The notes beneath the pieces are model-generated. The model worked only from the letters and a program-made list of their open reading frames with translations. It had not been told where the DNA came from and searched no databases. This document shows, piece after piece, positions 6,184 to 34,327 of a stretch of 35,440 bases of DNA. The translations under genes were made by a program, and so were the position numbers. The DNA is from an uncultured Pseudomonadales bacterium (GTDB lineage: Bacteria; Pseudomonadota; Gammaproteobacteria; Pseudomonadales; Pseudohongiellaceae). Position 1 is the first letter of the stretch. Each line of letters opens with the position of its first letter. The stretch lies in contig CAJQHM010000132.1 of assembly GCA_905478195.1 (NCBI GenBank), positions 1 through 35,440 on the forward strand, in the 5' to 3' direction.

Positions 6184-7812
6184 TTATTCCAAGCCAAATA
6201 CATACAGCGTCTGGCCACCGATAATGGCCACACGCTGATTTCCATCTACCGAGAAGCCCATGGGGTTAGTGCGCACGTGGGCACCGGTGTTGAAGAACCA
6301 CAGCGGGTCTCCATCTTCGCCATCCAGTGCGAAGAAATAGCCTTCGTTACTCGCCCCAAATACTAGCCCGCCGGCGGTGGCCATAACGCCTGACCAGGGT
6401 GGGGTCTGTAACTCAAACTCCCACTGCTGCTCGCCGCTCATTACATCCAGCGCCACGATGGCTCCCGATGCGTCGTCACCATCCATAGGCTGCTCGCCAC
6501 CACCAAGAAAAGGCATGCCTGCCTCGTATTCCACATCGGACTTGAAATAGATGGCGCCCATTCTTCGATTGGGCACGAAGAACTGTTCTGTCTGCGGGTT
6601 GTAGGAGGGAGAAAACCAGTTCGTGGCGCCTTGCAGGCTAGGCCATACCAGATTGCCCTCCCGCGTTGGGTCCGAATTCGGTATCACAATCGGCCGTCCA
6701 TTCTCGTCGATACCCTCGGCCCAGGTCTGAAATGAATACTCCTTGCCTAACAAGTATTCTCCAGTTTCGCGATCTAATAAATAGTAAAAGGCATTACGAT
6801 TTGCCAACGCCAACAGCTTGCGCTGACGCCCCTCAAATTCGCCATCAACCAGAACCGGAATCTGATTCGCATCCCAGTCATGGGTATCGTGCGGCGTGTA
6901 TTGAAAGAACCACTTCATCTCACCGGTATCTGGATCTAGAGCTAACACCGCACAGGTAAAGAGATTGTCGCCGGGGCGCAGGTCGCCGTTCCAGTCAGGC
7001 GCCGGATTGCCCGTGGTCCAGTAGAGTAAATCGAGCTCAGGGTCATAGGAGCCGGTAAGCCAGGTAGAACCTCCCCCGGTCCGCCACGCATCACCCTGCC
7101 AGGTCTCGCTGCCAGGTTCGCCGGGTGCAGGCACGGTGTAGGTACGCCACAGTCGTTCACCACTTTCGGAATCATAGGCATCGATGTAACCACGCACGCC
7201 TGCCTCGGCACCGCTAACGCCTACGACAATCTTTCCATCCAGAGCCAGCGGCGCGAGAGTGAGAGAAAACCCCGACAAGTTGTCGGCAACCTTGCTTTCC
7301 CAACGCACGGCCCCTGTGCGCGCATCGAGGGCGAACAGACGTGCATCCAGGGTGGCTACATAGACCTTGTCATCCAACAGCGCCACTCCGCGATTGATTC
7401 GCGGAAATCCTATATTCAATACATCGTTAGTTATGTCAGGCACGAAGTGCCAAAGCGTGCGACCAGTTCGTGCGTCCAATGCGGTCACGCTGCTGGGAGA
7501 TTCCGTGAGGTACATGATGTCATCAGCGACCAACGGAGTCGTTTCCTGCAGCGCCGCGCCACTTATCCCCGTCGGCCTCATCTGATAGGCCCACATCACC
7601 TTAAGCTGGTCTACATTCACCGTGTTGATTTGAGACAGAGGCGAGAACCGTTCCGATTTATAGCCGCCGGAATAAGAGAGCCAATCGGCACCGTTCTGCT
7701 CATCGGCGAGTAGCGCCTCGAACGGTGTGTCTGCCAGAGCAGTATTGCTGGCAAGTGTTAGCAAGAAGCATAGCGCGAATAGCGAGATAGATAATGGTTG
7801 CTGTAATTTCAT
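6184..7812 (-). CDS. Periplasmic PQQ-dependent alcohol dehydrogenase-type quinoprotein
   Basis: An eight-bladed propeller quinoprotein of the methanol/ethanol dehydrogenase family, exported by a Sec signal ending near TALADT. It oxidises an alcohol or aldehyde with PQQ and passes electrons to a cytochrome c. Repeated tryptophan-docking motifs are visible (ALDARTGRTLWHF, ALDARTGAVRWES, ALDPDTGEMKWFF, ALDGEDGDPLWFF). The active-site loop TPHDTHDWDANQ gives Asp at about residues 312 and 314; Asp two residues after the catalytic Asp is the feature used to recognise lanthanide-dependent members. No fused haem domain is present. ATG 7812 is preferred over 7827 because GGAG lies nine bases upstream of it. 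It follows the cytochrome gene by 18 bases, so the two form an operon. Confidence 0.9.
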   Translation of the reverse strand: MKLQQPLSISLFALCFLLTLASNTALADTPFEALLADEQNGADWLSYSGGYKSERFSPLSQINTVNVDQLKVMWAYQMRPTGISGAALQETTPLVADDIMYLTESPSSVTALDARTGRTLWHFVPDITNDVLNIGFPRINRGVALLDDKVYVATLDARLFALDARTGAVRWESKVADNLSGFSLTLAPLALDGKIVVGVSGAEAGVRGYIDAYDSESGERLWRTYTVPAPGEPGSETWQGDAWRTGGGSTWLTGSYDPELDLLYWTTGNPAPDWNGDLRPGDNLFTCAVLALDPDTGEMKWFFQYTPHDTHDWDANQIPVLVDGEFEGRQRKLLALANRNAFYYLLDRETGEYLLGKEYSFQTWAEGIDENGRPIVIPNSDPTREGNLVWPSLQGATNWFSPSYNPQTEQFFVPNRRMGAIYFKSDVEYEAGMPFLGGGEQPMDGDDASGAIVALDVMSGEQQWEFELQTPPWSGVMATAGGLVFGASNEGYFFALDGEDGDPLWFFNTGAHVRTNPMGFSVDGNQRVAIIGGQTLYVFGLE

Positions 7813-7830
7813 TCTAGTAGGCTCCATGCT

Positions 7831-8616
7831 TCATTTCAGGCTCATAAGATAAGACACAACATCATCGGTTTGCTGCGCATTCAACACCGAGTTATATCCC
7901 GGCATGAGCGAGTGGCCGGGCGCCTTCTCATAACTGATCAAATCTGCTTTTTCGAAGGAGTAGAGTTTTCCAGACAGGTCGCGCATCTGCACGGTGAAAG
8001 CATCCTCGTTGACGCGCATCCCCTCATAGCTGCCGTACTCTGAGACAATTCTTACGGTCAAAAATGCATTGAGCGAACCTCGAAAGCGATCAACCTGGCG
8101 TGGCTGCTCTGCATCCGGAGACATTACCGAGCGGCGCAGGTAAGCCGCATTGCGTCGCTGGCCAACATTACTAAGCTCCGGCCCCACGCCGTTTCCTTCG
8201 CCAAAAATAATATGACAGCTAGCACAATTGCCAACAGACCTATAAATCTCGGCGCCCGCTAGAGGGTCACCGGGCATTTCCTCCGGTGGTAATTCACCCA
8301 GACTGCGAACATAGGCTGCCACATCCGGCCCGTCCTGGCCGCGCAACTGCCGTGAGCCGGGCATGCCCGTACCCGGAATGCCGCCCACTATTAAGGCGAC
8401 TAACGCCTCATCATCAGGCGCATGAACCAGAGTGGGCCGTGTAAGACTTGGACCCTCGCCTCCACCGCCGAGCATGCCATGGCAGCGAGCACATAGAGTT
8501 TGAAAGAGCTGCTGACCGTTCTGTAGATCTTGTGCGAAAGCCGCTGGAGCACAAGATATCGCCACGGCCCACAGAATCAAGGCTGACAAACGAAGCAGGT
8601 AGTTCTTAGCGGACAT
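7831..8616 (-). CDS. Dihaem cytochrome c, partner of the PQQ dehydrogenase
   Basis: An exported c-type cytochrome of 261 residues with a Sec signal ending at PAAFAQ. It has two CxxCH haem sites: C42-C45-H46 (CARCH) and C131-C134-H135 (CASCH). The first domain has a candidate axial Met in the GTGMPG loop near residue 85; the second has a candidate near LMPG toward the C-terminus. It is placed directly upstream of, and on the same strand as, the quinoprotein, with AGGA nine bases before its ATG. This is the usual pairing in which the cytochrome accepts electrons from reduced PQQ and hands them to a terminal oxidase. A single transcript from upstream of 8616 is likely. Confidence 0.88.
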   Translation of the reverse strand: MSAKNYLLRLSALILWAVAISCAPAAFAQDLQNGQQLFQTLCARCHGMLGGGGEGPSLTRPTLVHAPDDEALVALIVGGIPGTGMPGSRQLRGQDGPDVAAYVRSLGELPPEEMPGDPLAGAEIYRSVGNCASCHIIFGEGNGVGPELSNVGQRRNAAYLRRSVMSPDAEQPRQVDRFRGSLNAFLTVRIVSEYGSYEGMRVNEDAFTVQMRDLSGKLYSFEKADLISYEKAPGHSLMPGYNSVLNAQQTDDVVSYLMSLK

Positions 8617-15785: not shown

Positions 15786-16181
15786 CTTCACTCATTTCCT
15801 GCTACGGCTGTTATGACGCGTTTTCCCCCTCTATATAGTCTCGTTCGTCCTAATTGGATCAATCTAGCCAATGGAGAAAACCGAATAGCCACCCAATTAT
15901 CTAGATTGTATTAGCTACCTAGGAAGGCCTGCCAGACAGGGCAAGAATTGAAAGACCCAGAAAGACGGGGCCAGTTTTCTAGATGCACTTTGTTGCACAC
16001 TAGAGAAAAATCGAAGAGATTTGCCTATATAATCTTGAGGTGAAACGATAAATTGGGTTGAAGAGTCTCGACAATAGACTCTATTCGAGATTGAATAGCA
16101 TTCAACAATAACCCAGCTCGCACAAAAAATAGCAGTGATAAACCAGCACGACTAAAAGACGACGAATTTGGAGATTACATC
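15786..16181. other. Divergent intergenic region upstream of the Tat protein gene
   Basis: About 395 bases between mlaA (minus) and the Tat-secreted protein (plus). It holds an imperfect inverted repeat at 16066-16090, listed separately. Otherwise it is AT-rich, with no coding sequence that I can support. Confidence 0.5.
16066..16090. promoter_or_regulatory. Imperfect inverted repeat (candidate operator or mRNA hairpin)
   Basis: TCTCG-AC-AATAGA (16066-16078), a single C, then TCTATTCGAGA (16080-16090). All eleven bases of the right arm pair with the left arm if the two-base AC bulge is allowed. It lies about 90 bases upstream of the Tat protein start and could be either a regulator site or a 5'-UTR hairpin. 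Confidence 0.35.
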
Positions 16182-16874
16182 ATGAGCAATAATACCGATA
16201 AGCTGCAGGGACGACGCCGATTCCTTACAGGTGTTGGACTGGCGGCAACTACTGCCACTCTCGCTTCATCAGCTCAGGCTGCGAGCAGTGACAGCGCTCA
16301 TCATGGCTTTTCCCCTGCTCGCCACGAGGAAGATGCCTGGATGGATGCAAATTCCGCCAGTCACAGAGTCTTCATCGACTCCTCCAGCACATCGGGCGGT
16401 ATTACCGCATTGAATTACGCCAACAATATATTTGTAGGCCACGCAGAAGGCTATGACGGGGAAGAATCAGACGTCTCGATTGTGGTTTGTTTCCGCCATG
16501 GCTCAACGCCTCTGGGTTATAACGATGCCATGTGGGGTAAATATGGCGAGCAGTTCAGCCAGATGATGAACCTGATGGATCGCAGTACTGATCAAGCCTT
16601 CTTGGTCAATCCCATGAACCTGAGTCGATCCGACTACGGAAATCGAGGCAATACCATCGACTCCTTGATCGCCAGGGGTGTCAGCTACGCAATTTGCCGT
16701 AAAGCGACACGCTCTTTCGCTACCAGACTGGCCCGAGCAACCGGCGGTGATGTTGAAGCGATCAATGCGGAGCTGCTGGCGAACAATGTATCCAATAGCC
16801 GCTTCGTTCCAGCTGGAGTTGTTGCGGCAACGCGCAGTCAGGAATACGGATATAGCCTGTTGTATTCAGCTTAG
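16182..16874 (+). CDS. Tat-secreted protein of unknown function, possible DsrE-like fold (paralogue of 32964-33653)
   Basis: A 230-residue protein with a twin-arginine signal (GRRRFLTGVGLAATTATLASSAQA). The mature part has HHGFSPARHEEDAWMD, a segment ending VVCFRHGSTPLGYNDAMWGKYG, and a C-terminus with GVSYAICRKATRSFATRLA and SRFVPAGVVAATRSQEYGYS. The last element (a strand with a Cys, a helix, then VPAGVxAxxRxQExGY) is the layout of secreted DsrE-like proteins, so I suggest that fold; the assignment is tentative. No metal or redox motif of a known class is visible. GGAG lies eight bases before ATG 16182. The gene stands alone and ends in a terminator at 16959. Confidence 0.7.
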   Translation: MSNNTDKLQGRRRFLTGVGLAATTATLASSAQAASSDSAHHGFSPARHEEDAWMDANSASHRVFIDSSSTSGGITALNYANNIFVGHAEGYDGEESDVSIVVCFRHGSTPLGYNDAMWGKYGEQFSQMMNLMDRSTDQAFLVNPMNLSRSDYGNRGNTIDSLIARGVSYAICRKATRSFATRLARATGGDVEAINAELLANNVSNSRFVPAGVVAATRSQEYGYSLLYSA

Positions 16875-16958
16875 GTCTGACTCTGCATAAAGAGGGTCTC
16901 TGCTGGAAGCGCCACTCGTGTAATCAGAAATTAGGCGCAGAGAAGACTGAAACAAAAC

Positions 16959-16991
16959 GCCAGTGCCTGAGACCGGTCACTGGCATTTTTT
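16959..16991 (+). terminator. Intrinsic terminator after the Tat protein gene
   Basis: Stem GCCAGTG (16959-16965) pairs with CACTGGC (16978-16984), followed by ATTTTTTATT. It lies between this gene and the convergent cytochrome gene ending at 17009. Confidence 0.8.
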
Positions 16992-17008
16992 ATTGGCTAT
17001 AGATCGCC

Positions 17009-17968
17009 TTACAAGTTTCGATAGTACTCACGAATAGGCTCGAATGGGCCCAGCTTATGCTGTTCGTGGGAAAAATTGTCAGCATAGGGTAGATAGGGGC
17101 TATCCACCGGCTTCCTTGTAAGGTCGGGATAATCAACTTCGAGATTCGCTCGAACCGGCCGCTCATGGGAATTCATGTAGGCCGCCACGTCATAGGCCTC
17201 ATCATCACTTAGATCAGGCTGACCAAGTGGCATTCGCGCCTTGATGAATCGGGCCGCAGTGAGCAGGCGCGTCATGCCCGCTCCGTTATTAAAACTATCT
17301 GGCCCCCATAGCGGCGGAAACAGATAGCCGTCTGCTAAATCCCCCGTCTGCTTCAAGCCTGCGCCATCTTCTCCGTGGCACACCTGGCACCTTTCCTGAA
17401 ATACTACTTCACCGGCCTCAAGACTCGCCGCTCGATTCGGCTCCTGAAATGCCGGCGGCTCATCGGGGGCTCGTTTGCTATCGCCCATCAATTGATATTG
17501 GCTCGCGAGCCCCTTGATATACATCTCCATGGAAATCATTTCGATACTATTACGATCCAGCTCCGTGCCATTCATGCTTCGCGTCATGCAACCGTTGATG
17601 CGGTCACGCAGGTCTCCCTCTACGCCGTCTCTGCCGGAAAACCTGGGATACTTGGTGTCCGCGAGCAGTAGTGAGAGAGTGCCCGGTTCGGTGCCCGTGT
17701 CGAGGTGACAGGACGCGCAGTCGAGATTGCTGCCAGAGAAACGCTTAGCTGGATCTTCATGGCCAGGGCCCATCATGGCCGACGTTTCACGAATCAGACG
17801 CCTACCGAATTCGACACTGGGTTGGGCAAACACCTGCTCAGTAGAGACCTCGCCCGAATACATCGATAGCGCTAACACAATGACGGCTATGCCAAGCACC
17901 GCGCTGCTCGCCATCGCCGCGACCAGACTGAAGCCTTGCTGTTTCGATTCGACGCTGAGTTGAATCAT
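17009..17968 (-). CDS. Membrane-anchored TsdA-like dihaem cytochrome c (candidate thiosulfate dehydrogenase)
   Basis: TsdA-type enzymes couple two thiosulfates into tetrathionate, and some run the reverse reaction. Two haem c sites are present: C84-C87-H88 (CASCHLDTG) and C194-C197-H198 (CQVCHGEDG). Between them, INGCMTRSMNG places Cys127 about 40 residues after the first haem site, where TsdA has its unusual haem-1 Cys ligand. The KARMPLGQPDLS loop offers the haem-2 Met. Instead of a cleaved signal, residues 12-37 form an uncleaved-looking helix (GFSLVAAMASSAVLGIAVIVLALSM), so it is probably anchored facing the periplasm. Its ATG overlaps the TGA of the preceding small gene (ATGA), and both follow the fused cbb3 oxidase. 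Thiosulfate specificity is inferred. Confidence 0.8.
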   Translation of the reverse strand: MIQLSVESKQQGFSLVAAMASSAVLGIAVIVLALSMYSGEVSTEQVFAQPSVEFGRRLIRETSAMMGPGHEDPAKRFSGSNLDCASCHLDTGTEPGTLSLLLADTKYPRFSGRDGVEGDLRDRINGCMTRSMNGTELDRNSIEMISMEMYIKGLASQYQLMGDSKRAPDEPPAFQEPNRAASLEAGEVVFQERCQVCHGEDGAGLKQTGDLADGYLFPPLWGPDSFNNGAGMTRLLTAARFIKARMPLGQPDLSDDEAYDVAAYMNSHERPVRANLEVDYPDLTRKPVDSPYLPYADNFSHEQHKLGPFEPIREYYRNL

Positions 17969-18213
17969 TTGGTTTCACCACTGCTATTATTCACTTGAAG
18001 TCCTAATTGGTCTTGATCGTCATTTAACTCATGCCGATCTTCGCTGGCAGACTTCGCGCCTGCCCCCGTCTGCATATCATACATCGACAATTGCCGAAGG
18101 AAAGCAAATTTAGGCTGTTCAACACGTTCGCGCAGCCCCGGCTTGAGCAGATACTGCAACGTAAACCAGCCTGCCATCAATAAGGATGAGAATACGATCA
18201 AGTTACTAATCAT
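17965..18213 (-). CDS. Small single-span membrane protein of the oxidase operon
   Basis: An 82-residue protein with one N-terminal transmembrane helix (MISNLIVFSSLLMAGWFTLQYLL) and a polar C-terminal tail rich in Asp, Glu, Asn and Gln. No family is recognised. Its ATG (18213) lies inside the last codons of the oxidase gene, an eight-base overlap ending in TAG, and its TGA overlaps the ATG of the TsdA-like gene. Coupling on both sides says it works with these two proteins. By position and topology it could be a CcoQ-like accessory or anchor subunit, but there is no sequence match to CcoQ that I can see. A longer in-frame reading up to 18246 is unlikely. Confidence 0.7.
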   Translation of the reverse strand: MISNLIVFSSLLMAGWFTLQYLLKPGLRERVEQPKFAFLRQLSMYDMQTGAGAKSASEDRHELNDDQDQLGLQVNNSSGETK

Positions 18214-20893
18214 CGCCGATTTGCTCCCGATAAAGTGACCGCACATAGTGCACCGCCGCGGTCATTTCCTGAGCGTTCAGCCGATCTCCCCAGGGAGCCA
18301 TAGACGTTCCGGCGACACCCTCACGCAGCGCGCGCAGTGCCGCCGCCTCACTTAGTCTTTCTCTAGTAAAATCCGTAGGCATAATAGGGATAGGCAGGTT
18401 CTGTGCAGCAAATCCATTTCCACCGCCATCATCCCCATGACATTCCGCACAGTTAGTCTCGTAGACACTCTGCCCGGCAGCCAATAGAGTACTAGTAGTG
18501 CTGGCAGCATCTACCAGGCTGAAACTGTCTACCACATCCGCCAGTGCCGCCAGCTCTTCCAATGGAAGGTCTCGCCAGGCCGGCATAGAGGCGCCATGTA
18601 TCCCATTCCAAAGAATTTCTGCAAGCAGATCACGGCGATAGCGGTGTTCTGTAAAAGCGACAGGCGGCGGACTCAACAAGCTGGAAGCTGGCCCATCGCC
18701 CTCTCCGCTGTCACCATGACAGCCACTGCAGTTGTCGCGAAAAAGCTGCATGCCCAAGCCACTATTGTCAGAGCCCTGTAGCTCCCCAGAGGGAAGTGCT
18801 GGAGCCAAACCCAGCGGCCGGGTTCGCCCGGGATGGGCATTCAAGACCTCGGCCGTCAACGACATAAGCGCACGCTCATCATCGGTGAGAGCTCTCGCTC
18901 TCTCATCGCCCTCCGGCCATGCCAATTCACGTTCTCTGCCCAGGCTCTCTATATAGGCTAGAAGATCCAAGGCTTCGCGGCCAGGCCTGTCGGCGGAGCC
19001 TTCGAACAGTTCCGGGTAGCCTGGCATGACAGACAGAGGCACAACTGTTCTAGGTGCATACAGGTGGGCGAGATGCCACTGATCGGTTCTGGTCCCGGAC
19101 GCTCTCGCCAAATCCGGGCCGATGCGGCGCGTGCCCAGCATATGTGGCGTATCCTGCCTTCCCTCCCAGGCCAGGCTCGGCGCACCGAAGCGTCGCATAT
19201 CAGATTCGGTGTAGCGAACCTGCTGGGTATGACAGTAGGCACAACCCTCGCGTGCGTAGATTACCCTGCCGCGCTCCTGCGCCGGCGATAGGGCAAGCGA
19301 AGCGGTTGGAGCGAGTAATGCCGTCTCATCCTGCAGCGATTGAAGGGGAATGACGCCAAGTATAGAAACCGAAAGCACGAAGAATCCGATGCCACACACA
19401 AATGCTGCAACGTATGACATCCGCAGCGCCGGCGAAAGACCGATTGAGCCTATGGCACCCTTCGCTGTCGTATCCGATTGATTCTGTTCATTGCCACTCG
19501 TGCTGACTGCTTGATCCGTTGCAGATGCTGTTCGGCTGCTCAACAAGCCATAGAACAACAGACCAAAACCGAGCGTAACCGGTATTGCCGAGAGACTGCG
19601 AACTGCCCAGTAAGGTGCCGATGCCCGCACCGAGTCGATCCACGGCGCGGCATCCTGCCACAATGCTCCCTGAACAAAACCCGCCAGGGTAAGATCCAGC
19701 ACCATTAGCCAGATACCAAACACCAATAGGTAATAGGACCAATCGAGAATCTTTGCATCGAGACTAAAACCGGGAAGTCGCTGCCAGGCATGGATGATTC
19801 CTGCGATACCCGCGAAGGTAGCGAAGCCCAACATGGCAAGATGGGAATGACCAATGATGAAATCGGTAAAATGCACCAAGCTGCTAAATGACATATCCGC
19901 CTGCATCGAACCCTGCAGGCTAACAACGAGATAGAACACAACACCCATGGACGCGAAACGCAGCGCGATATTCTTCGGAATGAGACCGAAGCCTCGCTGC
20001 GAGAGCAAGAGATTAGACACAACGATGATGACAACCAGCCCTAACAGAAACGAGGCAACTATGGCGGTGAGCTGAGCAGCCATCGGTATAGCAGAGTAGA
20101 TGTAGTGGTGAATGCCGTTCAGCGGGTAGAGAAAGAACAGGCCCCAGAAGCCAAGCATGGACAGAAAATGGCTATAGATTGGCTTGCCGGTACTGGCAGG
20201 CACCACATAGTAAAGGATAGCCAGCGCCATGGGTGTCACGAACAGGCCCACAGCATCGTGGATCCACAAACCGCTGAAGGCAGCTCCTGCCGCTCCCGGC
20301 ACTAATTCCGGCACGATATTACCCATGGGAAACGATAACAGGGTAAAAACCAGCCCGCCGATGATGTACCAGCTGGACACATAGAGGTTCTCGAAGCCTT
20401 GCTTGAAGAACCCGGGTAAGAACTGCACCGCGGCCAGAATGAAGCCGGCGACGATGACGACATCAACGGGTAGAGGGAATTCGGCCCATTCCAGCGGCTG
20501 GCTGAAACCACTGAGCACCAGAATCCAGCCCGGAATCATTACGGCAAAATTCCAGATCGCAAACAGGCACAGCCCCAGAGTACGGCTGGTGACAGGCCTG
20601 CCACTGAGCACAGGCACCGCATGGTACATGAACGCCAGGAATGCATTGCCTAGCCAGCCCAGCATAATCCCTTGGGTGTGGGCATAGCGCATCCGACCCC
20701 ATGAGGGGAAGGCCCCCAGAGATTCTGGAAATACAAATTGCAGTGAAACCAGAATGCCGAAGCATACGGCGATCAGAAGCGTCGCGAAAGCGGCCAGAGA
20801 ATGGGCTCTAACCAGCAGGCTCTCTACTTGAGGGTTAAACTCGGCGTGGGACTCCACAGAGGATTGCTTCGTATGACTATCAGTTGAATGCAT
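18206..20893 (-). CDS. Fused cbb3-type oxidase: CcoN + CcoO-like + two cytochrome c domains
   Basis: One ~895-residue polypeptide. Numbering from an upstream in-frame TTG (20947), residues ~45-475 are a CcoN-type haem-copper subunit with about 12 helices: H90 (low-spin haem), H230 and H280/H281 (CuB), Y274, and H367/H369 (haems). Y274 lies 44 residues after H230, the same spacing as the cross-linked His-Tyr pair of cbb3 oxidases. A helix at ~508-534 leads into a CcoO-like domain (C569-C572-H573, then RRIGPDLARASGTRTDQWH and VMPGYP). Two more cytochrome c domains follow, at C740-C743-H744 and C833-C836-H837, with candidate ligands M788 and M883, replacing the dihaem CcoP. ATG 20893 is preferred to the TTG; neither has a strong ribosome site. 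It reduces oxygen to water and conserves energy. Confidence 0.93.
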   Translation of the reverse strand: MHSTDSHTKQSSVESHAEFNPQVESLLVRAHSLAAFATLLIAVCFGILVSLQFVFPESLGAFPSWGRMRYAHTQGIMLGWLGNAFLAFMYHAVPVLSGRPVTSRTLGLCLFAIWNFAVMIPGWILVLSGFSQPLEWAEFPLPVDVVIVAGFILAAVQFLPGFFKQGFENLYVSSWYIIGGLVFTLLSFPMGNIVPELVPGAAGAAFSGLWIHDAVGLFVTPMALAILYYVVPASTGKPIYSHFLSMLGFWGLFFLYPLNGIHHYIYSAIPMAAQLTAIVASFLLGLVVIIVVSNLLLSQRGFGLIPKNIALRFASMGVVFYLVVSLQGSMQADMSFSSLVHFTDFIIGHSHLAMLGFATFAGIAGIIHAWQRLPGFSLDAKILDWSYYLLVFGIWLMVLDLTLAGFVQGALWQDAAPWIDSVRASAPYWAVRSLSAIPVTLGFGLLFYGLLSSRTASATDQAVSTSGNEQNQSDTTAKGAIGSIGLSPALRMSYVAAFVCGIGFFVLSVSILGVIPLQSLQDETALLAPTASLALSPAQERGRVIYAREGCAYCHTQQVRYTESDMRRFGAPSLAWEGRQDTPHMLGTRRIGPDLARASGTRTDQWHLAHLYAPRTVVPLSVMPGYPELFEGSADRPGREALDLLAYIESLGRERELAWPEGDERARALTDDERALMSLTAEVLNAHPGRTRPLGLAPALPSGELQGSDNSGLGMQLFRDNCSGCHGDSGEGDGPASSLLSPPPVAFTEHRYRRDLLAEILWNGIHGASMPAWRDLPLEELAALADVVDSFSLVDAASTTSTLLAAGQSVYETNCAECHGDDGGGNGFAAQNLPIPIMPTDFTRERLSEAAALRALREGVAGTSMAPWGDRLNAQEMTAAVHYVRSLYREQIGDD

Positions 20894-21454
20894 GTATGCG
20901 TCTTGTCGTTTGAACCGGAACAAAGCCTTTTGGGCGCTTCGAGCCAACTACGGTGGTATTTTTAGTAATCATAGACCACTGAAATTACGACTCCCGGCCT
21001 TTATCTATTTGCTTTGAGATCGGCCTTGGCCAGACCTTCTCACTGCTGCTCTCCTGCCAATGCAAGTCTACTTCTATCTAGAGGGGAGAGCAAAATACTA
21101 AATCTTGCACGAATTGCTAAGCAATAGCCCCAGGATCCCATGCTATGTGGAGCAATGCTGATCAAGATCAGTAGAATCCGGGTGTGTTCTCACCCCAATG
21201 CCGTAAAATGGCGCTCAATCAGAGCATCCGCGCGTCACACAGTGTTACACATTATTGCAGCGCTGTTGTAGTGTTAGCGTTTTACCCTGTAGAGTAACCG
21301 AGTAAACTAACAGGCTTGGATGTGTGGGAGTATAAATCTGTAAAATGTCTACGGGGATAGCAGCTCTATCCGCTAGAGAACGAATTGAATTGGTACAAAT
21401 TAGCATAGAACGTAACCTTAGAACTTAACCAAAATAAGAGAGTTGGAGGAAGTA
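20894..21454. other. Divergent regulatory region of the oxidase operon
   Basis: About 560 bases separate the fused oxidase (minus) from the exported protein at 21455 (plus). An FNR/ANR-like palindrome sits almost midway (21158-21171). No ORF here is convincing. The region is long enough for a 5'-UTR or small RNA, but I see nothing specific. Confidence 0.5.
21158..21171. promoter_or_regulatory. FNR/ANR-like binding site
   Basis: CTGATCAAGATCAG is a perfect inverted repeat (arms CTGATC and GATCAG around AA). It matches the FNR/ANR consensus TTGAT-N4-ATCAA in the TGAT-N4-ATCA core, with the outermost base changed on each side. FNR/ANR proteins commonly control cbb3 oxidases. It lies 265 bases from the oxidase ATG and 284 bases from the ATG at 21455, so it could serve either or both. 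Confidence 0.55.
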
Positions 21455-22045
21455 ATGTCGAAACTAACTATTACACTGGGTCTACTAACAGCCGGACTAT
21501 TGGCATCCAGTCAGGTCGCAGCACAATCTGATGCGGCAACTATCGCAAAAGCCGTATCCCCACTGCCACAGGATCTACGCGCCGATGCAACCGTGTATAC
21601 CTATGATGACAATGGCAATCGGGTAACTCTCAAGGTTGGCTCAAACCACGTTGAGTGCCAACCAACAGACGAGGAAGGCTTCACTCGCTGTGCCCCTGTT
21701 TCACAACGCGCGCGTCGCGACCTGCAAGCGAAATTGTCAGCCCAGGGTCTTGAAGGCGATGAATTAGAGATGGCCATGCAGAAGGCCGAAGACGAGGGTA
21801 CTATTCCTGCGCGCAAATTCGGCATGCTGAGCTATCGCCGATTTGATACACCAGATCGTATTCAGTACCTGATGGTCGTGTCCCTGCCAAACGCATCTGC
21901 CGAAGAACTCGGCATGCCAGTCGGTCCACAGCGCGACAACTCGCTCGCCGGCATGGGTACTCCATGGATGATGCGCCCAGGCACTTCCGGTGCTCACCTG
22001 ATGATTCCAATTAACGGTACCGAGTATTCCAATTCACCGCACTAG
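21455..22045 (+). CDS. Exported protein of unknown function
   Basis: A 196-residue periplasmic protein with a Sec signal (KLTITLGLLTAGLLASSQVAAQ, cleaved before SDAA). The mature part begins ATIAKAVSPLPQDLRADATVYTYDDNG and is mainly polar, with two cysteines about 12 residues apart (VECQP and TRCAP) that could form a disulfide. A coiled or helical stretch follows (RARRDLQAKLSAQGLEGDELEMAMQKAEDEG), then SYRRFDTPDRIQYLMVVSLP. I recognise no family. ATG 21455 has a near-perfect GGAGGA site; an upstream TTG at 21443 lies within that site and is rejected. It is followed by a strong terminator and is probably monocistronic. The strong site suggests good expression. Confidence 0.75.
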   Translation: MSKLTITLGLLTAGLLASSQVAAQSDAATIAKAVSPLPQDLRADATVYTYDDNGNRVTLKVGSNHVECQPTDEEGFTRCAPVSQRARRDLQAKLSAQGLEGDELEMAMQKAEDEGTIPARKFGMLSYRRFDTPDRIQYLMVVSLPNASAEELGMPVGPQRDNSLAGMGTPWMMRPGTSGAHLMIPINGTEYSNSPH

Positions 22046-22093
22046 GTGACCCTTGGAATGCCTTGAGACATTCAAGGTAAAGATTAGCGAAGA

Positions 22094-22119
22094 GCCCACC
22101 TCCCGGTGGGCTTTTTTTT
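22094..22119 (+). terminator. Intrinsic terminator
   Basis: Stem GCCCACC (22094-22100) and GGTGGGC (22105-22111) with a TCCC loop, followed by eight T residues. It ends the gene at 21455. Confidence 0.92.
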
Positions 22120-22247
22120 GCACGACGGTCTGCAAGGAGCTATGCGGCCTTTTCCTGTTAACTTCGTAAAGTGGTGCTTTTTGCAAGCAATGTGTGTGAT
22201 TTGACACTGTGCTAATATTCATACCACATCTACGGCCATGCAAAGCA

Positions 22248-32963: not shown

Positions 32964-33653
32964 TTACCCAGTCGCGTACATGAAGCTGTACCCATACTCC
33001 TGCGCGCGAGTAGCTGCCATAACGCCTGCGGGAACGAAGTGACTGGAAGGGATGGCGTTGCTAACCAGTTCCTCATATACCTCTTCCGTCGTTCTGCCGG
33101 CAGAGCGCGCCAACATGCCAGCCATACCACGGGTAGAGAGATCGCAGACGGCAAAGCGAACACCTCGGCCACTCATCGCGTCGATCGTATTGGAGCGATT
33201 GCCATAAGTCCGCTCTACACTGAGGGGATTGATCGTAACGGGGTCGCCATTACTATTGCTCACGCCTGTGCGCCCCACGAATAGATCACCATACTTTTCC
33301 CACATGGCATCGTTGAAGCCATAGGGAGATGAGTCATGGCGAAAACAGACGATCAGACCATAGTCTTCATCACTGCCGCCGTATCCCTGTGCATGGGCCA
33401 AGAGAATATTGGATGCAAAATTCATTGCAGCAATGCCACCTGAACCGGTTGAAGAATCTACGAAGGCACGGTGAACCCCGCCCATTTCGTCCATCCAACT
33501 GTCTTCGGCATGGCGCGCCGGCGTGAAGCCAGAATTACCATGATGGGAATGACCGGCCTCCTGCGCATTCGCTGCGACCGCTGCACCGGCGGCGGCTACC
33601 AGGCCGGCACCGGCAAGAAATTTGCGTCTATTGTGGGTTTGATCTGCACTCAT
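32964..33653 (-). CDS. Tat-secreted protein, paralogue of 16182-16874
   Basis: A 229-residue protein with a twin-arginine signal (NRRKFLAGAGLVAAAGAAVAANAQ). It is plainly homologous to the gene at 16182: both share HHGxxxFxPARHxEDxWMD, a stretch ending VCFRHxSxPxGxNDAMWxKYG, the RxxYGNRxNTIDxxxxRGV segment and FVPAGVxAATRxQEYGYSxxY at the C-terminus. The C-terminal layout resembles secreted DsrE-like proteins, and this copy lies 134 bases downstream of a clear DsrE-family gene on the same strand, which supports that reading. GGAG precedes the ATG. The His residues near the mature N-terminus (GHSHHG) might bind metal. Function is unknown. Confidence 0.7.
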   Translation of the reverse strand: MSADQTHNRRKFLAGAGLVAAAGAAVAANAQEAGHSHHGNSGFTPARHAEDSWMDEMGGVHRAFVDSSTGSGGIAAMNFASNILLAHAQGYGGSDEDYGLIVCFRHDSSPYGFNDAMWEKYGDLFVGRTGVSNSNGDPVTINPLSVERTYGNRSNTIDAMSGRGVRFAVCDLSTRGMAGMLARSAGRTTEEVYEELVSNAIPSSHFVPAGVMAATRAQEYGYSFMYATG

Positions 33654-33787: not shown

Positions 33788-34327
33788 CTAACCACCGATC
33801 TTCACATAGCCTTGGCGGCCAAGTTCAATAAGCGTTGTCAGAGCCCAGTAGTCCACCTGAATTTCATCCAGCAGATCATCTTCCTTAACATTGCGCGATA
33901 GCACACCCTGGCCGCAGAGATGAAATGTTACGCCTGCTGCATGCAGCTGCTTGATGAGGTCGATGTTCGGATTATCCTTGCCGTCGTGGCGAGCCTTGAA
34001 TTCTTCATTTTTCAATCCGATCAGACCGGAGCCCTGATGCATCACGATGGCGATCTTGCGATTCTCTTTCGGCACGCCCAGATTGGCCAGCGTATTCACA
34101 TAGCGCGCGATCAACGGCAGCATGGGATAGGGGTCATCCAGATCCTCATCAAAAACGACCAGGTCGAACAACACCTTGTATTCGGTATTCGGGTCGGGGG
34201 TCAGGTGTGCCCCCGGATAGTCCCGACTGGCGTTGTAACCGGAAATTGGCAGTTCATCGGCGGCAAACACCGGATTCAGTAGAAAGATTGCGGGCAGTGA
34301 AATCAGTAGTAACTTGAACAGCTTCAT
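33788..34327 (-). CDS. Exported DsrE-family protein
   Basis: A 179-residue DsrE-fold protein with a Sec signal (KLFKLLLISLPAIFLLNPVFA, cleaved before ADEL). DsrE-family hallmarks are present: KIAIVMHQGSGLIGL (strand and loop), DLIKQLHAAGVTFHLCGQGV with Cys138 at the end of the conserved strand, and VDYWALTTLIELGRQGYVKI at the C-terminus. In sulfur oxidisers, cytosolic DsrE and TusD proteins carry persulfide on a Cys. Here the protein is periplasmic and the single conserved Cys138 is retained in the mature chain. A very strong ribosome site (AAGGAGATATACA) precedes the ATG. Next downstream on the same strand is the Tat-secreted DsrE-like gene. Confidence 0.88.
   Translation of the reverse strand: MKLFKLLLISLPAIFLLNPVFAADELPISGYNASRDYPGAHLTPDPNTEYKVLFDLVVFDEDLDDPYPMLPLIARYVNTLANLGVPKENRKIAIVMHQGSGLIGLKNEEFKARHDGKDNPNIDLIKQLHAAGVTFHLCGQGVLSRNVKEDDLLDEIQVDYWALTTLIELGRQGYVKIGG

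What the first reader, a model, noticed from the sequence alone, without database searches (positions are those of the whole stretch)
18206..20893. Single-polypeptide cbb3 oxidase: CcoN, CcoO and two extra cytochrome c domains fused
Seen: one uninterrupted frame with a complete haem-copper subunit (six His ligands, and the cbb3 Tyr 44 residues after the CuB His), a CcoO-like domain with its own membrane helix, and two further CxxCH domains in place of the dihaem CcoP. Known: cbb3 oxidases are normally encoded as separate ccoN, ccoO and ccoP genes; CcoN-CcoO fusions are reported in some bacteria. Inference: the whole N-O-P set in one chain is a compact oxidase, perhaps with altered assembly because subunit stoichiometry is fixed.
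Basis: partly seen in the sequence, partly recalled or inferred. Interest (0 to 1): 0.75.

Follow-up and report, generated by a model that had tools for sequence, protein, structure and literature searches.

The report
Sulfur-linked single-chain cbb3 oxidase
A bacterium carries a respiratory oxygen-reducing enzyme whose three usual subunits are joined in one protein, and its gene sits in an overlapping run with a gene for a likely thiosulfate-oxidising cytochrome, so together they would form a compact route predicted to pass electrons from sulfur compounds straight to oxygen.

Summary
It is not an artefact: 119 of 119 database homologues aligned keep every haem site, and 78 of 80 named-genome loci carry CcoN and CcoO in one frame. 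The fusion itself is not new: Nitrospina gracilis was reported in 2013 to have the three cbb3 subunits in one gene (PMC3578206). The oxidase stop overlaps a small membrane-protein gene, which overlaps a TsdA-like thiosulfate dehydrogenase gene; an exported DsrE-fold distant relative of the Acidithiobacillus thiosulfate dehydrogenase lies beyond. Across Gammaproteobacteria, Acidobacteriota, Planctomycetota and Melainabacteria, 75 of 80 loci keep a thiosulfate (TsdA/TSD-like) or sulfite (SorA) dehydrogenase relative beside the oxidase; the other five are cut by contig ends. Canonical ccoN loci do so in 2 of 20. Best reading: a divergent cbb3 clade serving as terminal oxidase of sulfur-compound oxidation, with an exchangeable donor enzyme. 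Direct electron transfer is inferred. New variant of a known kind.

The parts
18206..20893 (-). fused cbb3-type oxidase, 895 aa (CcoN-CcoO-cyt c-cyt c)
19523..20821 (-). CcoN (haem-copper subunit I) domain, residues about 25-457
   Evidence: Pfam COX1 and TIGR00780 matches; PDB 3mk7_A match E 2e-33
18986..19393 (-). CcoO (FixO) mono-haem domain, residues 501-636
   Evidence: Pfam FixO E 4e-33; PDB 9g6b_B E 4e-28
18536..18760 (-). first extra cytochrome c domain, residues about 712-786 (CxxCH 722-726, Met770)
   Evidence: limits set by eye
18233..18484 (-). second extra cytochrome c domain, residues about 804-887 (CxxCH 815-819, Met865)
17965..18213 (-). small single-helix membrane protein (82 aa) with a conserved ExPK motif; its inferred start overlaps the oxidase stop by 8 bases
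   Evidence: sequence; helix 5-23; relative next to the oxidase at 66 of 80 loci (sum over the groups) and at 11 of 11 family loci (8 of these not among the 80)
17009..17968 (-). TsdA-like dihaem cytochrome c (319 aa) with a likely N-terminal membrane anchor; its start overlaps the stop of the small gene (ATGA)
   Evidence: PDB TsdA 4wq7 E 3e-35; Cys127, Arg113, Arg123, Ser131 in 49 of 49 rows; helix 15-33
16182..16874 (+). TAT-exported DsrE-fold protein (predicted), distant relative of A. ferrooxidans thiosulfate dehydrogenase (TSD); invariant Cys172
21455..22045 (+). divergently oriented conserved secreted-looking protein of unknown function (start inferred; the frame opens at 21443), found at 22 of 34 loci of the gammaproteobacterial group

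Best explanation
It is a one-gene cbb3-type oxygen reductase (CcoN, CcoO and two cytochrome c domains in one chain) that is predicted to be the terminal oxidase of a dedicated thiosulfate-oxidation module, likely taking its electrons from the TsdA-like cytochrome encoded two genes downstream in the same overlapping gene run. Shown: the chain, its haem and copper ligands, the overlapping genes, the TsdA catalytic residues, and the retention of a thiosulfate or sulfite dehydrogenase relative beside this oxidase clade in several phyla. Inferred: TsdA, held at the membrane by its N-terminal helix, joins two thiosulfates to tetrathionate on its Cys-ligated haem. Electrons then pass through TsdA haem 2 to the two C-terminal haems of the oxidase (which stand in for CcoP/TsdB), on to the CcoO haem, to haem b and to the b3-CuB site, where O2 is reduced. 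In other phyla the donor is exchanged for SorAB, which would feed sulfite electrons into the same oxidase. The small ExPK-motif helix is probably a CcoQ-like accessory subunit, and the exported DsrE-fold protein probably handles thiosulfate or tetrathionate through its invariant cysteine.
For: (1) Oxidase identity: His ligands, cross-link Tyr and three CxxCH/Met c sites kept; CcoN/CcoO PDB matches. (2) Overlaps ATGATTAG (18213-18206) and ATGA (17968-17965) tie oxidase, small gene and tsdA together. (3) TsdA: Cys127, Arg113, Arg123 and Ser131, by spacing and alignment the equivalents of Cys123, Arg109, Arg119 and Ser127 of A. vinosum (PMC4423706, passages; alignment), are in 49 of 49 rows. (4) 75 of 80 loci have TsdA, TSD-like or SorA in the flanks; the five without (L018, L032, L038, L041, L077) are cut by contig ends near or in the oxidase. 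Canonical ccoN loci: TsdA 1 of 20, SorA 1 of 20; TsdA 1 of 30 with 1.5 kb flanks. (6) Oxidase and TsdA distances agree over 48 pairs (Mantel r 0.94; 0.88 within each of two groups). (7) The association survives re-ordering: among the gammaproteobacterial group the TSD-like gene is convergent downstream in 25 of 30, upstream in 4 and farther downstream in 1; in Acidobacteria it follows the oxidase on the same strand. (8) Split relatives on Paraburkholderia and Acetobacter plasmids have TsdA-like cytochromes just upstream (E 7e-71, 2e-71). (9) soxB does not reach its cut-off in the own genome, and there is no second strong TsdA.
Against: No expression, activity or interaction data. The residue just before the haem-2 Met is Arg in 30, Asn in 15, Lys in 2, Thr in 1 of 49 rows, 1 cut; it is Lys in thiosulfate-oxidising A. 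vinosum and Asn in the tetrathionate reductase of C. jejuni (PMC5146829, passages), so the direction of TsdA is not settled by sequence. The A. ferrooxidans TSD reduces neither ubiquinone nor horse cytochrome c (PMC6335251, passages), so the TSD-like protein may not donate electrons. The annotated DsrE genes near the plasmid copies did not match the TSD-like profile at E 1e-4. Pseudomonas loci have an extra cytochrome gene between SorB and CcoN, so a shuttle may be needed. More distant relatives (about 34%: Sinorhizobium, Phyllobacterium) show no SorA or TSD-like gene and only weak TsdA-profile matches (best E about 1e-13) in the flanks, so the link belongs to this clade and not to every relative. 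The profiles were built from the same loci that were then counted, the 80 loci are the nearest of 156 found with two peptides, and the loci are related, so 75 of 80 are not independent events.
Confidence: 0.6

Rival explanations
1. A general high-affinity cbb3 oxidase fed by the bc1 complex and soluble cytochrome c; the sulfur dehydrogenases are merely co-regulated and share the common cytochrome c pool.
For: The oxidase keeps the canonical haem ligands. In the own genome it is the only FixO-bearing oxidase. Pseudomonas loci carry a separate cytochrome gene as a possible shuttle.
Against: 13 of 21 family genomes with the fused oxidase also carry canonical CcoN and CcoO elsewhere. Canonical loci rarely have such neighbours (2 of 20). 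Gene overlap with the partner.
Confidence: 0.25
2. The TsdA-like protein works in reverse as a tetrathionate reductase or as redox poise or detoxification, and the oxidase serves to scavenge O2 or protect the cell, with little energy gain from thiosulfate.
For: The haem-2 neighbour residue is mostly not the A. vinosum Lys, and is Asn, as in C. jejuni, in 15 of 49 rows (PMC5146829).
Against: A reductase would compete with the adjacent oxidase for electrons. SorA, a relative of sulfite dehydrogenases, takes its place in other phyla.
Confidence: 0.1
3. Nitric oxide reductase or another non-O2 reductase with a CcoN-like fold.
For: The N domain is far from canonical CcoN (branches of 4 to 5 changes per column; TIGR00780 score 161 against a cut-off of 583), and Trp203 is replaced by Gly in 81 of 81 rows.
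Against: The cross-link Tyr is present in 81 of 81 rows, and the residue four after the CuB His is Gly (G216, invariant in the 26 rows), not the Glu that NORs carry there (recalled). CcoO domain intact.
Confidence: 0.05

Closest known systems
Nitrospina gracilis fused cbb3 oxidase (2013 genome paper, PMC3578206; passages seen)
   Same: CcoN, CcoO and dihaem CcoP in one gene (954 aa); Trp203 replaced by Gly, as in 81 of 81 rows here
   Different: N. gracilis has His202 and uncommon Tyr at 205 and 208; here these places hold Ser207, Trp210 and Asp213 (window numbers). There it is proposed to take electrons from nitrite oxidation; a sulfite:cytochrome c oxidoreductase is mentioned but was not tied to the oxidase in the passages seen. 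Its sequence and neighbours were not obtained here.
Canonical ccoNOQP cbb3 oxidase (P. stutzeri 3mk7 and others)
   Same: CcoN and CcoO by sequence, His ligands, cross-link Tyr; Thr215, Ser240 and Asn293 equivalents kept in 81 of 81 rows
   Different: one chain; no separate membrane helix for the CcoP part; Trp203 to Gly, His243 to Gly or Ala, Glu323 to Gln (79 of 81); separate, strongly supported clade
TsdA thiosulfate dehydrogenase/tetrathionate reductase (A. vinosum, C. jejuni) and the TsdBA fusion
   Same: dihaem cytochrome with the Cys, Arg, Arg and Ser of the active site and the haem-2 Met
   Different: likely membrane-anchored and overlapping an oxidase run; no gene between or beside them was recognised as TsdB, so the oxidase c domains may take that role; the Lys before the Met is mostly not kept
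SorAB sulfite dehydrogenase
   Same: SorA and SorB relatives sit upstream of the oxidase in Planctomycetota, Melainabacteria, three Acidobacteria and Pseudomonas loci
   Different: not in the window; the Pseudomonas pair scores below the NCBIfam equivalog cut-offs
A. ferrooxidans TSD (AFE_0042; NF052225)
   Same: distant sequence match; exported protein
   Different: far below the model cut-off; predicted DsrE fold with an invariant Cys; function here unknown

Membership tests
C-family (cbb3) haem-copper oxygen reductase | six His ligands and helix-VII cross-link Tyr | tested here: met
   81 of 81 rows for five His and the Tyr; H72 in 77 of 81, 4 gaps
C-family (cbb3) haem-copper oxygen reductase | CcoO mono-haem subunit with membrane helix | tested here: met
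   FixO domain, hydrophobic helix 497-515, CxxCH and Met
C-family (cbb3) haem-copper oxygen reductase | dihaem CcoP subunit | tested here: met
   two C-terminal cyt c domains, but no membrane helix between CcoO and them
C-family (cbb3) haem-copper oxygen reductase | conserved Trp203 near CuB (common, not defining) | tested here: not met
   Gly in 81 of 81 rows; the same change is reported in N. gracilis and Sinorhizobium cbb3 enzymes (PMC3578206), so it does not exclude membership
canonical ccoN equivalog (TIGR00780) | score above curated cut-off 583 | tested here: not met
   160.7 bits; filed as a divergent clade, not as the equivalog
C-family (cbb3) haem-copper oxygen reductase | O2 reduction, haem spectra, proton pumping | not testable with these tools
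   needs purified protein
TsdA | two CxxCH haem sites | tested here: met
   haem-1 site 49 of 49, haem-2 site 48 of 49, one row cut
TsdA | Cys ligand of haem 1, invariant Arg119, TsdA-specific Ser127 | tested here: met
   49 of 49 each (residues from PMC4423706)
TsdA | thiosulfate to tetrathionate activity | not testable with these tools
   no assay
TSD (NF052225) | score above curated cut-off 300 | tested here: not met
   32 bits for the window protein, 94 for the Edaphobacter relative
DsrE-like fold | DsrE/YchN fold | tested here: met

The most novel reading that the evidence does not exclude
This clade is a hard-wired sulfur oxidase: a single-chain oxygen reductase with built-in cytochrome wires that docks an exchangeable sulfur dehydrogenase (TsdA for thiosulfate, SorAB for sulfite), forming thiosulfate:O2 and sulfite:O2 oxidoreductase complexes that by-pass bc1 and soluble cytochrome c, spread across at least four phyla and also found in split form on plasmids.
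Probability: 0.38. Interest if true: 0.77.

Novelty: new variant of a known kind. Interest (0 to 1): 0.6.

Why it matters
TsdA and SorAB are widespread, but where their electrons go is usually assigned to a generic cytochrome c pool (recalled). Here a distinct oxidase clade stays beside them in distant bacteria, most of them known from metagenome-assembled genomes. If the link is real, thiosulfate or sulfite respiration could be predicted from one marker gene in organisms such as this one, where no true soxB was found, and a compact cbb3 enzyme that may do without the usual assembly factors becomes available for structural work.

Tried and rejected
Frameshift or assembly artefact: rejected. 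Novelty of the fusion itself: rejected, because of N. gracilis. NOR test by tree: not usable. The 12 rows that I labelled NorB were only assumed to be NOR, three of them (L142, L143, L148) were wrong-strand frames, and the seven that aligned well carry the Tyr and Gly of oxidases. Structure of the oxidase: model mean pLDDT 67.6, too weak; used for no claim. Foldseek on the DsrE-like model: no hit with E below 0.001, resolved by the VIA second look. Profile search of that family in the PDB: best E 0.03, to MTH1491 (1l1s), which the VIA look also ranks high. Promoter and terminator scan: no minus-strand promoter-like site found in 16000-22200; counts near or below those of shuffles; no use. The library is partial, and of the listed papers I looked into six, passages only (PMC3578206, PMC10839748, PMC4423706, PMC5146829, PMC6335251, PMC4040986). 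In PMC4040986 a cbb3 terminal oxidase is proposed for Obscuribacter, and the word sulfite does not occur in its main text. N. gracilis itself was not fetched.
Full report
What is there. On the minus strand, 20893 to 18206, one frame of 895 residues encodes a cbb3-type oxidase in a single chain. Pfam finds COX1, FixO and two cytochrome c stretches in order. The best PDB matches are CcoN chains (3mk7, E 2e-33) and CcoO chains (9g6b, E 4e-28).

It is a family, not an accident. A protein search found 1174 homologues at E up to 0.001 among the 7998 candidates scored; the best 120 are listed, each with the COX1, FixO and cytochrome c Pfam families. The 119 other than the window's own copy keep all three CxxCH sites and their Met candidates. 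A scan of named species genomes gave 156 relatives, of which the best 80 were kept (the scan used two exact peptides, so it favours near relatives). In 78 of 80 the N and O parts share one frame; 76 of these have three CxxCH motifs, and two (L032, L082) run off their contigs after the first. The two Pseudomonas loci have CcoN and CcoO-c-c as two genes. Split relatives at about 49-50% also sit on plasmids of Paraburkholderia and Acetobacter and, by the listing, Komagataeibacter.

It is a separate clade of CcoN. In a quick maximum-likelihood tree the 79 rows of this family (window plus 78 of the 80 loci) stand apart from 30 canonical gammaproteobacterial CcoN with full SH-aLRT support and a very long branch. 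Family marks are Gly in place of Trp203 (81 of 81 rows), Gly (79) or Ala (2) in place of His243, and Gln in place of Glu323 (79 of 81), while Tyr251, Thr215, Ser240 and Asn293 stay in 81 of 81 (P. stutzeri numbers; those of His207, His257, His258 and Trp203 from PMC3578206, the rest recalled or counted from them).

The association is kept across phyla. With profiles of each neighbour, 75 of 80 loci have TsdA, TSD-like or SorA in the flanks: gammaproteobacterial group 32 of 34, Acidobacteria 22 of 24, Melainabacteria 7 of 8, Planctomycetota 12 of 12, Pseudomonas 2 of 2. The five misses (L018, L032, L038, L041, L077) end at contig edges in or close to the oxidase, and L038 still shows SorB. TsdA was found in 32 of the 34 and in 16 of the 24 acidobacterial loci, TSD-like in 30 and 19; SorA in 12 Planctomycetota, 7 Melainabacteria, 2 Pseudomonas and 3 Acidobacteria. 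In the tree the TsdA-bearing Acidobacteria lie with the SorA-bearing groups and apart from the gammaproteobacterial TsdA group, so the donor enzyme was exchanged at least once. The profiles were built from these same loci. Controls with the same profiles: of 30 canonical ccoN loci with 1.5 kb flanks one had TsdA; of 20 of these fetched with up to 8 kb flanks (some cut by contig ends), one had TsdA and another a SorA-like gene. They are 11 of the 20 other genomes in which that search lists the oxidase. Oxidase and TsdA divergence run together over 48 loci (Mantel r 0.94; none of 1000 permutations as high); shared ancestry of the genomes alone could give much of that.

The own genome. It is 2.97 Mb and 96% complete. 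It has one further COX1-family oxidase, no other FixO, no match to the CcoG, CcoS/FixS or FixH models, one SCO1, and a SoxB score far below the cut-off (78 against 550 bits). Among 59 family genomes, the window's included, I count 21 with the fused oxidase (some in pieces) in the listing, and 13 of these also carry separate canonical CcoN and CcoO (the listing is cut off at weak matches). So the fused enzyme is an addition to ordinary cbb3 in some relatives and is the only cbb3 enzyme seen in others, including this one.

How it likely works (inferred). TsdA would join two thiosulfates through a Cys-thiosulfonate (mechanism from PMC4423706, passages) and send electrons by haem 2 to the C-terminal haems of the oxidase, then to CcoO and the b3-CuB site. 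Swapping TsdA for SorAB would make the same oxidase a sulfite oxidase terminus. Against a simple story: the residue before the haem-2 Met is Arg in 30 and Asn in 15 of 49 rows, Lys as in A. vinosum in 2, so sequence does not fix the direction of TsdA. TSD from A. ferrooxidans is reported not to reduce cytochrome c (PMC6335251, passages). More distant relatives in Sinorhizobium and Phyllobacterium lack clear partners.

Known or new. The one-gene cbb3 was reported for Nitrospina gracilis (PMC3578206, passages), including the Trp203 to Gly change then called unprecedented; in this clade that change is fixed. The steady link of this oxidase clade to thiosulfate or sulfite dehydrogenases was not seen in what searches listed (open-licence library only, mostly seen as listings). 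I file it as a new variant of a known kind.

Noticed in passing
window 32964-33653 (-): a second TAT-exported paralogue of the DsrE-fold TSD-like protein (49% identical), about 12 kb from the oxidase
   Followed up: partly
window 33788-34327 (-): a further exported-looking small protein that by eye resembles DsrE proteins, next to the paralogue above
   Followed up: no
window 6184-8616 (-): PQQ-dependent alcohol dehydrogenase (TIGR03075 above cut-off) preceded on its strand by a two-domain cytochrome c
   Followed up: no
window 21455-22045 (+): secreted-looking protein without a Pfam match, kept beside the cluster in 22 of 34 loci of the gammaproteobacterial group, on either side of it
   Followed up: partly
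L129 9366-10349 (-): one canonical ccoN locus (G013) with a strong TsdA gene about 450 bases upstream on the same strand
   Followed up: no
L157, L159: Sinorhizobium and Phyllobacterium plasmids carry a 34% relative (split CcoN and CcoO-c) with SCO, hemA, groL and TauE genes; soxY and soxZ lie about 5 kb away in Phyllobacterium
   Followed up: partly
L067 11516-12466 (+): a ModA/CysP-like solute-binding protein lies between the TSD-like gene and TsdA; its cluster spans 17 acidobacterial loci, and substrate-binding proteins are annotated by the plasmid copies
   Followed up: no
L163: the copy in family genome G134 is split over several frames
   Followed up: no
L144-L147, L149-L151: another divergent 470-aa CcoN-like group in Gammaproteobacteria that keeps the cross-link Tyr
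   Followed up: no
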